From Clostridiales bacterium (GTDB taxonomy: Bacteria > Bacillota > Clostridia > Lachnospirales > CAG-274): 35,536 nt of DNA. The stretch is from the NCBI GenBank assembly GCA_021203425.1, contig JAJQBF010000078.1, positions 1 to 35,536 on the forward strand, given 5' to 3'. The translations under genes were made by a program, and so were the position numbers. Under the pieces are notes generated by a model. The model did no database searches. It was not told the DNA's origin and was given only the letters and a program-made list of their open reading frames with translations. Positions 20,537-26,356 of this stretch are shown here, piece after piece (position 1 is the stretch's first letter; each line of letters starts with the position of its first letter).

Positions 20537-21940
20537 TCAGATGGGGTAAACGCCGCTTTCCACATGGGCAAGGGTGGGGTCTATTCCGTATTTTTGCGCC
20601 TGACGGAACTTGAAGTAGTCTGTGGCTACCTGTGGGAAGAGAACATAGCTTAATACGTCCTCGTCCTGTTCCTTGAAGTCTATGATTTTCTTTTCCGCCT
20701 CGGAAAGCTCAGGCTTAAGAAGATCTGCCGGGCGGCAGGTAACGGGCTTTTCGTCCCCTATAATTTTCTTTCTTATTTCTTTTGAAATGGATACGGGTGT
20801 TTTGCCGTACATACCTCTTACGAGATCTTTTGTTTCTTTGGTGGTCATTTTATAGCGCTCACCCATAAGTACGTTTAAAACAGCCTGTGTGCCTACGATT
20901 TGGCTTGAAGGAGTTACAAGAGGAGGATAGCCTAAATCTGCTCTTACTCTGGGAACCTCCTCCAAAACCTCTCTGTATTTGTCTTCGGCGTTTGCCGTCT
21001 TAAGTTGTGAAACAAGGTTTGAAAGCATACCGCCGGGAACCTGATAGAGAAGTGTGGCTATATCAACGGAAAGAACCTTCGTGCTTAAAAGTCCGCTTTC
21101 AAGGGCTTTTTCTCTTAAGGGCACAAAGTAGTCGGCGATTGTCTTTAAAAGATGTTCATCAAGCTCGGGGTCATACTTTGTTCCCTTAAGGGCTGCGTTC
21201 ATAACCTCTGTGGCAGGCTGTGACGTACCCATTGAGAATGGGCTCATATCAGTATCAATTATGTCTGCGCCGGCCTCTATTGCCTTCAAGTAAGTCATTG
21301 ATGCAACACCGCTTGTGTAGTGGCTGTGAACCTCTATGGGCAGCTTAACCTCTGACTTTATTGCTTTAACAAGATTGTAAGCCGGGTCGGGAAGAAGAAG
21401 ACCTGCCATATCCTTAATACAGATTGAATCTGCGCCTATGTCTCTGAACTGCTTTGCCAGCTTAACGAAATAGCTTTCCGTATGAACATCGCTTAATGTG
21501 TAGGAAATTGCAAGCTGAGCGTGACCTTTTTCCTTTTTACAGGCCTTTACGACTGTTTCCAAATTTCTTTCATCGTTTAAGGCATCGAAAATTCTTATAA
21601 TGTCAATTCCGTTTTCTATGCTTTTTCTTACAAACATTTCAACAACATCATCGGCATAATGTCTGTAGCCCAGTATGTTTTGACCTCGAAGGAGCATCTG
21701 GAGCTTTGTGTTGGGGGCTGCCTTGCGGATTGCCCTGAGTCTGTCCCAAGGGTCTTCCTTTAAATATCTTAAACAGCTGTCATATGTTGCGCCGCCCCAA
21801 ACCTCCATTGCGCCGAAACCGACCTTGTCCATTTCGCTTACTATAGGCAGCATATCCTTTGTTGAAAGTCTTGTTGCTATAAGTGACTGCTGACCGTCAC
21901 GAAGAGTACAGTCGCAGATTTTTATTTTTTTACTACTCAT
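20537..21940 (-). CDS. oadA: Pyruvate/oxaloacetate carboxyltransferase subunit (OadA/PycB/5S-like), without a biotin domain
   Basis: Start at CAT 21938-21940 (MSSKKIKICDCTLRDGQQSLIATRLSTKDMLPIVSEMDKVGFGAMEVWGGATYDSCLRYL) with a GGAGGC RBS; ends ...DPTLAHVESGVYPI with no MKM biotinyl motif. Confidence 0.92.
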   Translation of the reverse strand: MSSKKIKICDCTLRDGQQSLIATRLSTKDMLPIVSEMDKVGFGAMEVWGGATYDSCLRYLKEDPWDRLRAIRKAAPNTKLQMLLRGQNILGYRHYADDVVEMFVRKSIENGIDIIRIFDALNDERNLETVVKACKKEKGHAQLAISYTLSDVHTESYFVKLAKQFRDIGADSICIKDMAGLLLPDPAYNLVKAIKSEVKLPIEVHSHYTSGVASMTYLKAIEAGADIIDTDMSPFSMGTSQPATEVMNAALKGTKYDPELDEHLLKTIADYFVPLREKALESGLLSTKVLSVDIATLLYQVPGGMLSNLVSQLKTANAEDKYREVLEEVPRVRADLGYPPLVTPSSQIVGTQAVLNVLMGERYKMTTKETKDLVRGMYGKTPVSISKEIRKKIIGDEKPVTCRPADLLKPELSEAEKKIIDFKEQDEDVLSYVLFPQVATDYFKFRQAQKYGIDPTLAHVESGVYPI

Positions 21941-21953
21941 ATATTGCCTCCTG

Positions 21954-22190
21954 TTATAAAATTTCCGTACGTTTGCCTGTCTGGCTATTGACAACGCTTT
22001 CATTGCAAAAGATGCTGAAAATCAAAAGAGCGGACTGACCGTAAAGACCTGTTTCGTCATCGGCAAAGGCTGCGGCTGTTCCCGAGGTATAAAACCTGTC
22101 AAGAGCCTCGTCTTCGGTTATGTTATATTTTTCGGAAATCAGCTTTACAATTTCGGGAACCAAAATAGCTCTTACTACAGCGTGTGACAT
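21954..22190 (-). CDS. DUF3791-like small protein (78 aa)
   Basis: MSHAVVRAILVPEIVKLISEKYNITEDEALDRFYTSGTAAAFADDETGLYGQSALLIFSIFCNE. Confidence 0.7.
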   Translation of the reverse strand: MSHAVVRAILVPEIVKLISEKYNITEDEALDRFYTSGTAAAFADDETGLYGQSALLIFSIFCNESVVNSQTGKRTEIL

Positions 22191-22192
22191 TA

Positions 22193-22687
22193 TTACACCT
22201 CCACGGTATAGCTTTTAATAAATGTAAGTTCATAAAGGGCATTATCACTGCAAAAAGCAATTTGATTGTTTATTTTTTCAAACTTAAGTCTTTCAACAGC
22301 GTCTTCCTTACGCATAATACCCTGAACTACATATGAAACGGTTTCACCTACATTATCATTAGCAATTTTCCCTTTTACAACATCAAATTCGTGCTTATAA
22401 TAGGGGTTGCTTCTGCAGTTTACAATCATTTCAAGCCAGTCAAGCGAAGCCTCATTGAATATTTTTTCCTTGAGAGTTCCGCTTTGTTTCCATTCATATA
22501 CATTCACTATAGGCAGAACGGAGGGCTTTAATGTTCGTGATGCAATTTTGGCTCGCCGAAGTGCCCAGCGCTCTGCTTGCTCTTTAATGTCTGTTGTATA
22601 AAAAGCAAAACCGAAATCTCTGCCAAGTTCATTTTTTATGATTTTGGGATTTTTTATTTCAAGTGTTGTTCCGTGATAAACTATCAT
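22193..22687 (-). CDS. DUF3990-like protein (possible ADP-ribosyltransferase fold)
   Basis: Preferred start CAT 22685-22687: MIVYHGTTLEIKNPKIIKNELGRDFGFAFYTTDIKEQAERWALRRAK...EFDVVKGKIANDNV...NNQIAFCSDNALYELTFIKS. Confidence 0.75.
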   Translation of the reverse strand: MIVYHGTTLEIKNPKIIKNELGRDFGFAFYTTDIKEQAERWALRRAKIASRTLKPSVLPIVNVYEWKQSGTLKEKIFNEASLDWLEMIVNCRSNPYYKHEFDVVKGKIANDNVGETVSYVVQGIMRKEDAVERLKFEKINNQIAFCSDNALYELTFIKSYTVEV

Positions 22688-22883
22688 TAACTGCATCTCC
22701 CAAATAATTGTCAATCAGCTGCATAAGATATTCCTTTCCCATTCCATGGAGATCGCCGTAATCTTCTCTGAGAAAATCAACAAGCCCCTCCCGTTTGAAA
22801 AGTTCATATACCTTATTGCCCGGCATACTGATATGTTCTGCATAATGTTCAATACAAAACGGAATAAACGAAAGCCTGCTCAT
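22659..22883 (-). CDS. DUF3791-like small protein (74 aa)
   Basis: MSRLSFIPFCIEHYAEHISMPGNKVYELFKREGLVDFLREDYGDLHGMGKEYLMQLIDNYLGD; 3' end overlaps the DUF3990 start. Confidence 0.78.
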   Translation of the reverse strand: MSRLSFIPFCIEHYAEHISMPGNKVYELFKREGLVDFLREDYGDLHGMGKEYLMQLIDNYLGDAVNDSLSRNNT

Positions 22884-22906
22884 ATTGAATTACCTCTCTT
22901 CAATAA

Positions 22907-24067
22907 TTACTGAAAAATCGCCAAGAATATACCCGACGCAACAGCGGAGCCTATAACTCCGGCTACGTTGGGACCCATAGCGTGCATAAGGAGATAGTTA
23001 TTGGGGTTTTCTTCCTTGCCTACGTTTTGAGCAACTCTCGCCGCCATAGGAACAGCGGAAACACCTGCCGCACCTATAAGGGGATTGATTTTTCCGCCTG
23101 AAAGCTTGTACATTACCTTACCTAAGAGAACACCGCCGGCTGTGGAAACCATAAATGCGAAAAGTCCCAAGATTACGATTTTAAGGGTGTCCGCTGTTAA
23201 GAAGGTTGCGGCGTCTGTTGTTGCCCCTACGGATATACCTATGAAAAGGCTTAATATATGCATAAGAGCCTCTGAGGCGTGGTTTGCTATTTTTTCGGTA
23301 ACTCCGCATACCTTTAAGAGATTTCCCAGCATAAGCATACCTATAAGTGAGGCTGTAGAGGGAAGAATAAGAATTACCAATATGGAAACCATTACGGGGA
23401 ATATAATCTTTTCGGTTTTTGAAACGGGACGCAACTGTTCCATTTTAACGGCTCTTTCTTTTTTTGTTGTCAACAGTTTCATAATAGGGGGCTGAATTAT
23501 GGGAATAAGCGCCATATATGAATAAGCCGCAACGGCAACCGTACTTAAAATATGGGGAGCCAGCTTTGTTGTTGTGTAAATGGCGGTGGGGCCGTCTGCT
23601 CCGCCGATTATGCCTATTGAGGCGGCCTCCTGTGGTGACATACCCAAGGCAAGGGCGCCCAAGAAGGCTATGAATATACCAAGCTGAGCCGTAGCCCCTA
23701 AAAGAAGGGCAGTGGGGTTAGCTATAAGGGGACCGAAGTCCGTCATAACACCTACACCTAAGAAAATAAGGGGAGGGAATATGCCCAAGGCGTCGCCCTG
23801 ATAAAGGTAATATAAAAGTCCGCCGACGGCGTCTTCCGTAGGCTCCGCCATAAGTCCTGCCCCGGGGAGGTTTGCCAAAAGCATACCGAAGGCTATAGGC
23901 AGAAGAAGAAGTGGTTCATATTTTTTAACAATGGCAAGATACATAAAGAAAATTGCCACACATATCATAATTATATATTTATAGCCGTCACCTTGAAAAA
24001 GAAGGAGAAAGCCGGAATCCGCAAGCAGACCGGAGAAAATTTCAAAAAGTCTGTTAATAAATAACAT
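22907..24067 (-). CDS. oadB: Sodium ion-translocating decarboxylase beta subunit
   Basis: Multi-TM; LIANPTALLLGATAQLGIFIAFLGALALG..EAASIGIIGGADGPTAIYTTTKLAPH...GVSAVPMAARVAQNVGKEENPNNYLLMHAMGPNVAGVIGSAVASG. Confidence 0.95.
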   Translation of the reverse strand: MLFINRLFEIFSGLLADSGFLLLFQGDGYKYIIMICVAIFFMYLAIVKKYEPLLLLPIAFGMLLANLPGAGLMAEPTEDAVGGLLYYLYQGDALGIFPPLIFLGVGVMTDFGPLIANPTALLLGATAQLGIFIAFLGALALGMSPQEAASIGIIGGADGPTAIYTTTKLAPHILSTVAVAAYSYMALIPIIQPPIMKLLTTKKERAVKMEQLRPVSKTEKIIFPVMVSILVILILPSTASLIGMLMLGNLLKVCGVTEKIANHASEALMHILSLFIGISVGATTDAATFLTADTLKIVILGLFAFMVSTAGGVLLGKVMYKLSGGKINPLIGAAGVSAVPMAARVAQNVGKEENPNNYLLMHAMGPNVAGVIGSAVASGIFLAIFQ

Positions 24068-24982: not shown

Positions 24983-26356
24983 TCAGATGCTGCCGTGTTT
25001 CTTAGCCACTGTCTGAACTCTCTTTGTATAGAGCATCTCAAGAGAAACGATTATGTGTTTTCTTGTAGCAGAGGGTATAATAATATTGTCGATATAGCCG
25101 TCTTCCGCCGACTTATAGGCTGAGCTGGCTTCGTCATATGTTTTGTCTGTATATTTGTGCATAATTTTTACATAGCCTGTTCTGTTAAGAAGAGAAATCT
25201 CCGCTGTAGGCCAGGCAAGAACGATGTCGGCGCCTATATATTTTGAATTCATAAGCATAAAGCCGGAGCCTATTCCGTTTCTTATGACAACATTGACACG
25301 GGGAATAGAGCTTTCCGCAAGCTTTGAAAGGAGCTGTGAAGAATAAAGCATAAGAAGGTTCTGTTCCGCTATGTTTATTTTTTCATATTCCTTAATATCC
25401 GTAAGGCTTACAAGGGGAATATTAAAGGCATCGCAAAGCTTTACAAAGCGGCCTGCCTTATGGGTTCCGCTTATGCCTATAGGACCGTTGTTAGCCATAA
25501 CGCCTACCGTATAGCCGTTTATCCTTAAGAAGGCGCAGATCATTTCCTTGCCGTATCTGGGCTGAATTTCGAAATATGCGTAGTCGTCTGAAAGACTGCT
25601 TATAATATAGTGCATATCTATAGGGGAGTCTTCGTCAACTACTATTGTGTTTAAGTTTTCGTCTTCTCTGTTAAGGTCGCTGTCTGTGGGAATATAAGCC
25701 ATATCCGTATTATTTGAAGGGAGAAGGTCTACAAGGCGCCTTGCTGCTTCAAGACAGTCTTCCTCTGTTTTATAGCTTCTGTGAACAAGACCTGTTTTTG
25801 TGGCATGAGCCTCTCCCGAGCAAAAATCGTCATAGTTTAAGGCTATTTCATCTGCTCCTTTTAAAACGGCAGGGCTTTTGAGAAACATATTTGAATTCTC
25901 GTCCTTCATAATTCTTATATCCGAAAGCATGGGGATATAGGTCGCTGTTCCCAAACATTTGCCCAAAACTACGGAAATTTGGGGAACAAGACCGCTTGCC
26001 GCCGTTATCTTTTGGAAAAGAAGACCGTAGACCTCAAGAGCCTTTTGACCGTCCTTAATTTCGATTCCCGTTGAATCTAAGATAGCAACTATGGGAGCGC
26101 CCATATTTATTGCCTTGTCATATAAATTTGCTACTTTGTCAGCGTGTTTTTTATTTACGGGGCCGTCTTGTGAATAAGCAAAACAGAGCTTGTCGTTTAT
26201 TATTCCGTAGCCCGTAATTACGTTTGCACCTTTTGTAAAGCTTTCAAGCTCAACAAAGCTGTTTTCGTCAAACAGCGTTTCAAGGCGCATTCTTGCTGCA
26301 GTTGGTTCTGCCGACTTGATTTTTAATAATTCTTCAATTTTTCCCGGCGTATCCAT
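24983..26356 (-). CDS. Carboxyl transferase (MmdA/acyl-CoA carboxyltransferase family, divergent)
   Basis: IEELLKIKSAEPTAARMRLETLFDENSFVELESF...LDSTGIEIKDGQKALEVYG...MANNGPIGISGTHKAGRFVKLCDAFNIPLVSLTDIKEYE. Confidence 0.88.
   Translation of the reverse strand: MDTPGKIEELLKIKSAEPTAARMRLETLFDENSFVELESFTKGANVITGYGIINDKLCFAYSQDGPVNKKHADKVANLYDKAINMGAPIVAILDSTGIEIKDGQKALEVYGLLFQKITAASGLVPQISVVLGKCLGTATYIPMLSDIRIMKDENSNMFLKSPAVLKGADEIALNYDDFCSGEAHATKTGLVHRSYKTEEDCLEAARRLVDLLPSNNTDMAYIPTDSDLNREDENLNTIVVDEDSPIDMHYIISSLSDDYAYFEIQPRYGKEMICAFLRINGYTVGVMANNGPIGISGTHKAGRFVKLCDAFNIPLVSLTDIKEYEKINIAEQNLLMLYSSQLLSKLAESSIPRVNVVIRNGIGSGFMLMNSKYIGADIVLAWPTAEISLLNRTGYVKIMHKYTDKTYDEASSAYKSAEDGYIDNIIIPSATRKHIIVSLEMLYTKRVQTVAKKHGSI

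What the first reader, a model, noticed from the sequence alone, without database searches (positions are those of the whole stretch)
21954..22883. DUF3791-DUF3990-DUF3791 cassette: candidate ART-type toxin-antitoxin-like or modification module
Three tightly packed minus-strand genes: a DUF3791-like ORF (22659-22883) overlaps the start of a DUF3990-like ORF (22193-22687), which is followed 2 nt later by a second, divergent DUF3791-like ORF (21954-22190). DUF3990 has features recalling ADP-ribosyltransferases (YHGTT, FxFYTT, late QIxF motif). Two small paralogs flanking one enzyme with overlapping frames suggest stoichiometric control or neutralisation. To my knowledge the family's function is uncharacterised.
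Basis: partly seen in the sequence, partly recalled or inferred. Interest (0 to 1): 0.75.

Follow-up and report, generated by a model that had tools for sequence, protein, structure and literature searches.

The report
ART-fold toxin with two-part antitoxin
A gut bacterium has picked up a three-gene cassette, wedged inside a metabolic operon, whose middle gene very probably makes an NAD-using toxin and whose two small flanking genes probably make a matched pair of proteins that hold it in check; it belongs to a catalogued but untested group of candidate phage-defence genes.

Summary
Genes U (22659-22883, DUF3791), D (22193-22687, DUF3990) and S (21954-22190, no Pfam hit) are packed on the minus strand. 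PADLOC already lists this trio as 'phage defence candidate' PDC-M13; I found no experimental study.

D is predicted with high confidence (pLDDT 92). Its best solved-structure matches are ART-fold proteins, led by the RES toxin of a Xre-RES toxin-antitoxin pair, with an invariant H5-Y30-Q142 set. S is a divergent homologue of U. In relatives the gene order permutes (U-D-S, D-S-U, S-U-D), U and S fuse into one 150-aa partner (PDC-M10), U fuses to D, or a partner carrying an XRE DNA-binding domain replaces both (PDC-M42).

The best functional evidence is asymmetric loss. In 76 loci chosen by S alone, D is broken or gone while U and S stay intact 19 times; the reverse was seen once. In one relative D was excised cleanly, leaving a fused U-S gene.

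The cassette is a lineage-specific insertion between oadB and oadA, which are neighbours in all eight other genomes of the genus. Relatives sit between leuC-leuD or inside R-M and BREX-like operons.

Most likely: an ART toxin with a two-part antitoxin. Toxicity, target and binding are untested.

The parts
22659..22883 (-). U: DUF3791 protein, 74 aa; first half of the proposed two-part antitoxin
   Evidence: PF12668 E 4.7e-18; PADLOC PDC-M13A/C; start 23 nt after the oadB stop with a GAGAGG ribosome-binding site
22193..22687 (-). D: DUF3990 protein, 164 aa; predicted ART-fold toxin with H5, Y30 and Q142
   Evidence: PF13151 E 7.7e-44; AlphaFold2 pLDDT 92; Foldseek to Xre-RES toxin, ParT, cholix and tankyrase; invariant H5, Y30, Q142
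21954..22190 (-). S: divergent DUF3791-like protein, 78 aa, four predicted helices; second half of the proposed antitoxin
   Evidence: PADLOC PDC-M13B E 5.8e-14; homologous to U; model pLDDT 86
22907..24067 (-). oadB-like sodium-pumping decarboxylase beta subunit; upstream flank of the insertion
   Evidence: PF03977 E 2e-155; next to oadA in 8 of 8 other genomes of the genus
20537..21940 (-). oadA-like carboxyltransferase; downstream flank; its own Shine-Dalgarno (CAGGAGGCAATATATG) is kept
   Evidence: PF00682 and PF02436; junction comparison
21941..22906 (-). Extent of the inserted block (about 0.95 kb), with no promoter above chance and no terminator inside it
   Evidence: Empty sites in relatives; promoter/terminator scan

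Best explanation
The cassette is a mobile toxin-antitoxin-type module. D is an ADP-ribosyltransferase-fold toxin that uses NAD+, either modifying a cellular target or hydrolysing NAD+. U and S are two homologous small helical proteins that act together, probably as a heterodimer, to bind and hold D inactive. Release of D, for example when infection or gene loss removes the less stable partners, would stop growth. Shown here: gene content, ART fold (predicted), U-S homology, near-obligate association, fusions, selective loss of D, and recent insertion between oadB and oadA. Inferred: toxicity, direct binding, the target, the trigger, and expression from the host operon's transcript.
For: ART fold: pLDDT 92; top PDB match is the RES toxin of P. 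putida Xre-RES (E 1.6e-3, prob 1.0, TM 0.5), then ParT, cholix, exotoxin A and tankyrase. H, Y and Q are invariant in 80 sequences; HY-[E,D,Q] is the triad named for the mRNA-modifying toxin CmdT (PMC11618068). U and S are homologous, and the 150-aa partner of two-gene relatives is U plus S fused. Of 148 distinct D genes with full flanks, 123 have both partners in some order or fused, and 8 have an XRE-type partner. In five loci U is fused to D in one protein. With S-chosen loci, D is lost with U and S intact 19 times versus once for the reverse: P 0.008 after correcting for gene length, 0.021 at one per genus. In G024, D is excised at a GGAGGY repeat at a locus where G023 and G025 keep it. 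Plasmid copies lie beside a zeta toxin or ParA genes.
Against: No toxicity, binding or enzymatic data exist here. Foldseek E-values are modest and TM is about 0.5. One family of bacteria keeps a U-S fusion with no D, so U and S may have a role of their own. One locus has lost U but kept D. The counts rest largely on metagenome-assembled genomes, in which some frameshifts may be assembly errors.
Confidence: 0.77

Rival explanations
1. The module is primarily an anti-phage abortive-infection system: U and S keep D silent and one of them senses a phage component, as CmdC does in CmdTAC.
For: PADLOC lists PDC-M10, M13 and M42 as phage defence candidates; some copies lie inside BREX-like or type I R-M operons; three-component ART defence has a precedent in CmdTAC.
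Against: PDCs were proposed by 'guilt by embedding' and most are untested (PMC12988326). The same kind of module is embedded in metabolic operons here and at leuC-leuD, and sits next to plasmid stability genes. This is compatible with the best explanation and differs only in biological role.
Confidence: 0.4
2. A selfish addiction module that is maintained because losing the partners is harmful, with no host benefit.
For: Patchy, horizontally spread distribution: D is 76% identical to one in an Oscillospiraceae MAG and 71% to one in Treponema, but about 35% to those within the genus; plasmid and phage copies; frequent toxin decay.
Against: Plasmid stabilisation is not tested, and patchy distribution is equally typical of defence genes.
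Confidence: 0.4
3. D is an ART that modifies a host protein for regulation and U and S are activators or targeting subunits, not antitoxins.
For: Fixed three-gene association, U-D fusion, and purifying selection on D (dN/dS about 0.05 between L122 and L123 or L124).
Against: Activators should decay once the enzyme is gone, yet intact U-S pairs outlast D. XRE-type proteins replace the pair.
Confidence: 0.12
4. The cassette is an assembly artefact or a non-functional gene remnant.
For: The genome is a draft in 307 contigs.
Against: Both flanking genes are complete, boundaries fall exactly between them, all three frames are open, and all invariant residues are present.
Confidence: 0.03

Closest known systems
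PADLOC PDC-M13 (phage defence candidate)
   Same: All three genes match PDC-M13 models at E 1e-13 to 1e-43.
   Different: PDC-M13 is a catalogue entry without a stated mechanism in the sources I could read. The ART fold, the U-S homology and the toxin-loss pattern are added here.
PADLOC PDC-M10 and PDC-M42
   Same: Same D family. The M10 partner is a fused U plus S. M42 is D plus an XRE-type partner, and the window's genome has one at C82 with a frameshifted D.
   Different: Two genes instead of three; the M42 partner shows only weak, non-significant similarity to U or S.
Xre-RES / ParST toxin-antitoxin family
   Same: Best solved-structure match of D is a RES toxin; ART fold; some relatives of D have an XRE partner.
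   Different: D has no RES Pfam hit. The RES partner is one Xre protein, whereas here there are two small proteins without a recognisable DNA-binding domain.
CmdTAC
   Same: Three-gene system around a small H-Y-[E,D,Q] ART toxin.
   Different: No SecB-like chaperone here; U and S are homologues of each other.
Rhs5-CT of Serratia marcescens (DUF3990 at an effector C-terminus)
   Same: Same Pfam domain used as the C-terminal domain of a type VI secreted Rhs protein with an adjacent putative immunity gene (PMC4524185).
   Different: Predicted secreted interbacterial effector; the window protein is free-standing with two partners.

Membership tests
DUF3990 (PF13151) | Profile match above the curated cut-off over the full length | tested here: met
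   149.5 bits versus cut-off 32.2, positions 1-152 of 152
DUF3791 (PF12668) | Profile match above cut-off: U | tested here: met
   65.4 bits versus 25
DUF3791 (PF12668) | Profile match above cut-off: S | tested here: not met
   No hit for the window S; homology to U only by profile-profile comparison; S of relatives G001 and G047 does pass the cut-off
ADP-ribosyltransferase superfamily | ART fold | tested here: met
   Predicted model pLDDT 92; RES, ParT, cholix, exotoxin A and tankyrase among top PDB matches; ART-PolyVal phage protein in BFVD. Prediction only
ADP-ribosyltransferase superfamily | H-Y-[E/D/Q] catalytic residues | tested here: met
   H5, Y30, Q142 invariant in 80 sequences. Their spatial arrangement was not inspected
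ADP-ribosyltransferase superfamily | NAD+-dependent transfer or hydrolysis | not testable with these tools
   Needs an enzyme assay
PDC-M13 | D flanked by two DUF3791-like genes, all matching PADLOC models | tested here: met
Type II toxin-antitoxin | Compact operon with small partner gene(s), overlapping or adjacent frames | tested here: met
   29-nt overlap and 2-nt gap; 4-nt overlaps common in relatives
Type II toxin-antitoxin | Toxin inhibits growth when alone | not testable with these tools
   Indirect only: selective loss of D
Type II toxin-antitoxin | Antitoxin binds and neutralises toxin | not testable with these tools
   Indirect only: natural U-D fusions; no co-fold possible with the structure tool
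RES toxins (Xre-RES) | RES domain and single Xre antitoxin | tested here: not met
   No RES hit for D and no HTH hit for U or S in Pfam
CmdTAC | SecB-like chaperone gene | tested here: not met
   U has only a DUF3791 hit and S has no Pfam hit

The most novel reading that the evidence does not exclude
Three separately catalogued defence candidates (PDC-M10, M13, M42) are variants of one toxin-antitoxin family built on an H-Y-Q ART. Its signature is a split antitoxin of two homologous proteins that must both be present, and the promoterless module spreads by inserting between genes of host operons of any kind. Its presence inside immune operons would then not by itself indicate a defence role.
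Probability: 0.45. Interest if true: 0.65.

Novelty: new variant of a known kind. Interest (0 to 1): 0.5.

Why it matters
The DUF3990-DUF3791 module is common: 161 of 392 sampled genomes of the order carry DUF3990, and PDC-M13 was counted 3,324 times in rumen genomes (PMC13356809). Yet neither family has a published function in the library I could search. The evidence here turns it into a concrete, cheap bench test: one toxin, two named partners, three candidate catalytic residues, and natural toxin-less and fused versions as controls. It also warns that 'guilt by embedding' can mislead for modules that also insert into metabolic operons.

Tried and rejected
Direct sequence search of D, U and S against PDB chains found nothing significant for D or S and only marginal, unrelated hits for U. 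The S model has no meaningful PDB match. A link between the XRE-type partner and U or S was not supported. A mobile-element boundary was sought at the insertion: no target duplication or terminal inverted repeats were seen. Enrichment of the module in operon-internal sites was considered but not claimed: 7 of 72 neighbourhoods have close same-strand genes on both sides, with no proper null. The first U-chosen survey was set aside as biased and replaced by the S-chosen one. A first version of the architecture count had labelling errors and was redone.

Full report
WHAT IS THERE. The three minus-strand ORFs are exactly as described. U (22659-22883, 74 aa) is DUF3791, D (22193-22687, 164 aa) is DUF3990, and S (21954-22190, 78 aa) has no Pfam match. 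PADLOC models named PDC-M13A/B/C match all three, so this trio is already catalogued as a phage defence candidate. One held paper counts 3,324 PDC-M13 systems in rumen genomes (PMC13356809). Searches for DUF3990 and DUF3791 found four papers and one paper; I saw no functional test of this module in them.

WHERE IT SITS. The cassette interrupts a sodium-pump decarboxylase operon: a carboxyltransferase-like gene at 24983-26356 (named from its sequence by eye, not scanned), the gamma chain, the biotin carrier, oadB, then the cassette, then oadA. In all eight other genomes of the genus oadB and oadA are neighbours. In seven of them only tens of bases separate the two genes; one has an unrelated 0.27-kb spacer with a dispersed repeat. 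The inserted block starts right after the oadB stop and ends right before oadA's own ribosome-binding site, which is identical to that of the nearest relative. I saw no duplicated target or inverted repeats. Promoter-like sites are at chance level, so expression from the operon transcript is likely but not shown. Flanking genes have G+C of about 0.45; D has 0.36.

WHAT D IS. A model from 80 aligned relatives has mean pLDDT 92 and pTM 0.87. The best solved structures are the RES toxin of Pseudomonas putida Xre-RES (E 1.6e-3, prob 1.0, TM about 0.5), then ParT, cholix toxin, exotoxin A and tankyrase, mixed with low-probability unrelated hits; the high-probability matches are ART-fold enzymes or a phage ejectosome protein. 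The viral library gives a close unnamed protein and an ART-PolyVal phage protein. Pfam's own ART clan includes DUF3990 (PMC7955679). H5, Y30 and Q142 are invariant across 80 sequences. [quoted passage not shown] I could not inspect the geometry. Intact close relatives are under purifying selection (dN/dS about 0.05).

WHAT U AND S ARE. Profile comparison aligns U with S over 58 columns (prob 92, P 7e-7). A first version with fewer sequences scored 36, against at most 12 in 40 column-shuffled controls. The 150-aa partner found in two-gene relatives matches U in its first half and S in its second (controls), and PADLOC calls that pair PDC-M10. S is predicted as four helices.

THE THREE TRAVEL TOGETHER. 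Among 148 distinct D genes with enough flank, 123 have both U and S: U-D-S 77, D with the fused 150-aa partner 25, D-S-U 14, and rarer orders including S-U-D. Eight have an XRE-domain partner, catalogued as PDC-M42. Most of the rest are divergent phage proteins. In five loci U is fused to D in one protein of about 235 aa, followed by S. Relatives occur in Bacillota, Spirochaetota, Fibrobacterota, Bacteroidota and others, on 71 plasmid records and in viral contigs. D of the window is 76% identical to one from an Oscillospiraceae MAG and 71% to one from Treponema, but only about 35% to the free-standing ones of its own genus, so it moved horizontally.

NATURAL EXPERIMENTS. In a related genus, three genomes share one locus. 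Two (G023, G025) carry U-D-S. The third (G024) has lost exactly D between two GGAGGY repeats, leaving U and S fused in frame. To see whether this is general without bias, I chose loci by S only. Of 76 loci away from contig ends, 52 have all three intact, 19 have D broken or absent with U and S intact, and one has D intact with U lost. One has both broken and three have S alone. With gene lengths taken into account the imbalance has P 0.008, or 0.021 if each genus counts once. Even the window's own genome carries a second, PDC-M42-type locus in which D is frameshifted and the XRE partner is intact. This is the pattern expected of a toxin and its antitoxins.

CONTEXT ARGUES FOR CAUTION ABOUT DEFENCE. 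Plasmid copies lie beside a zeta toxin (pBF9343) and ParA genes. Chromosomal copies lie between leuC-like and leuD-like genes, next to hsdM, between BrxC/D and a helicase, and inside a polysaccharide operon. A Moraxella plasmid has one between hsdM and hsdS. PDCs were proposed because they are embedded in immune systems and most await validation (PMC12988326). Finding the same kind of module in metabolic operons weakens that inference for this family.

VERDICT. The most likely reading is a toxin-antitoxin-type module with an ART toxin and a two-part antitoxin. The fold is predicted; toxicity, binding, target, trigger and benefit are inferred or unknown. It is a member of the catalogued PDC-M13 group; the mechanism proposed, with the split antitoxin, appears not to have been described in the literature I could search.

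Noticed in passing
L328-L332 (family f17 genomes, e.g. L330:1988-2401, L331:2009-2419): A conserved fused U-S protein of about 135-138 aa with no DUF3990 gene nearby occurs in many genomes of one family; in two loci it lies beside genes that look like cobalamin biosynthesis genes. It may be a domesticated antitoxin.
   Followed up: partly
L002:1300-2752 (window's own genome, contig C82): A second DUF3990 locus of PDC-M42 type: D is frameshifted between the YHGS motif and the DYGLGFY motif, while its XRE-domain partner is intact.
   Followed up: yes
L010:2655-2930 (G003): The same oadB-oadA junction in another species of the genus holds an unrelated insert of about 0.2 kb. It contains a dispersed repeat: related copies occur in G000, G003 and G004.
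   Followed up: partly
window 24983-26356 and 20537-21940: The decarboxylase operon appears to carry two different alpha-type genes: an acyl-CoA carboxyltransferase-like gene at its start and an oadA-like gene at its end.
   Followed up: no
L052 and L062 (upstream ORFs): An unrelated small protein (GNYEYYYLKYR...GKTVTDYIGRDEKKI) takes the upstream position next to DUF3990 in two loci, one of which has a truncated D.
   Followed up: no
L101-L115 (viral contigs): Phage-encoded D proteins are longer (about 190-220 aa) and mostly lack recognisable U or S, but several have an unknown 66-82 aa ORF overlapping their end.
   Followed up: no
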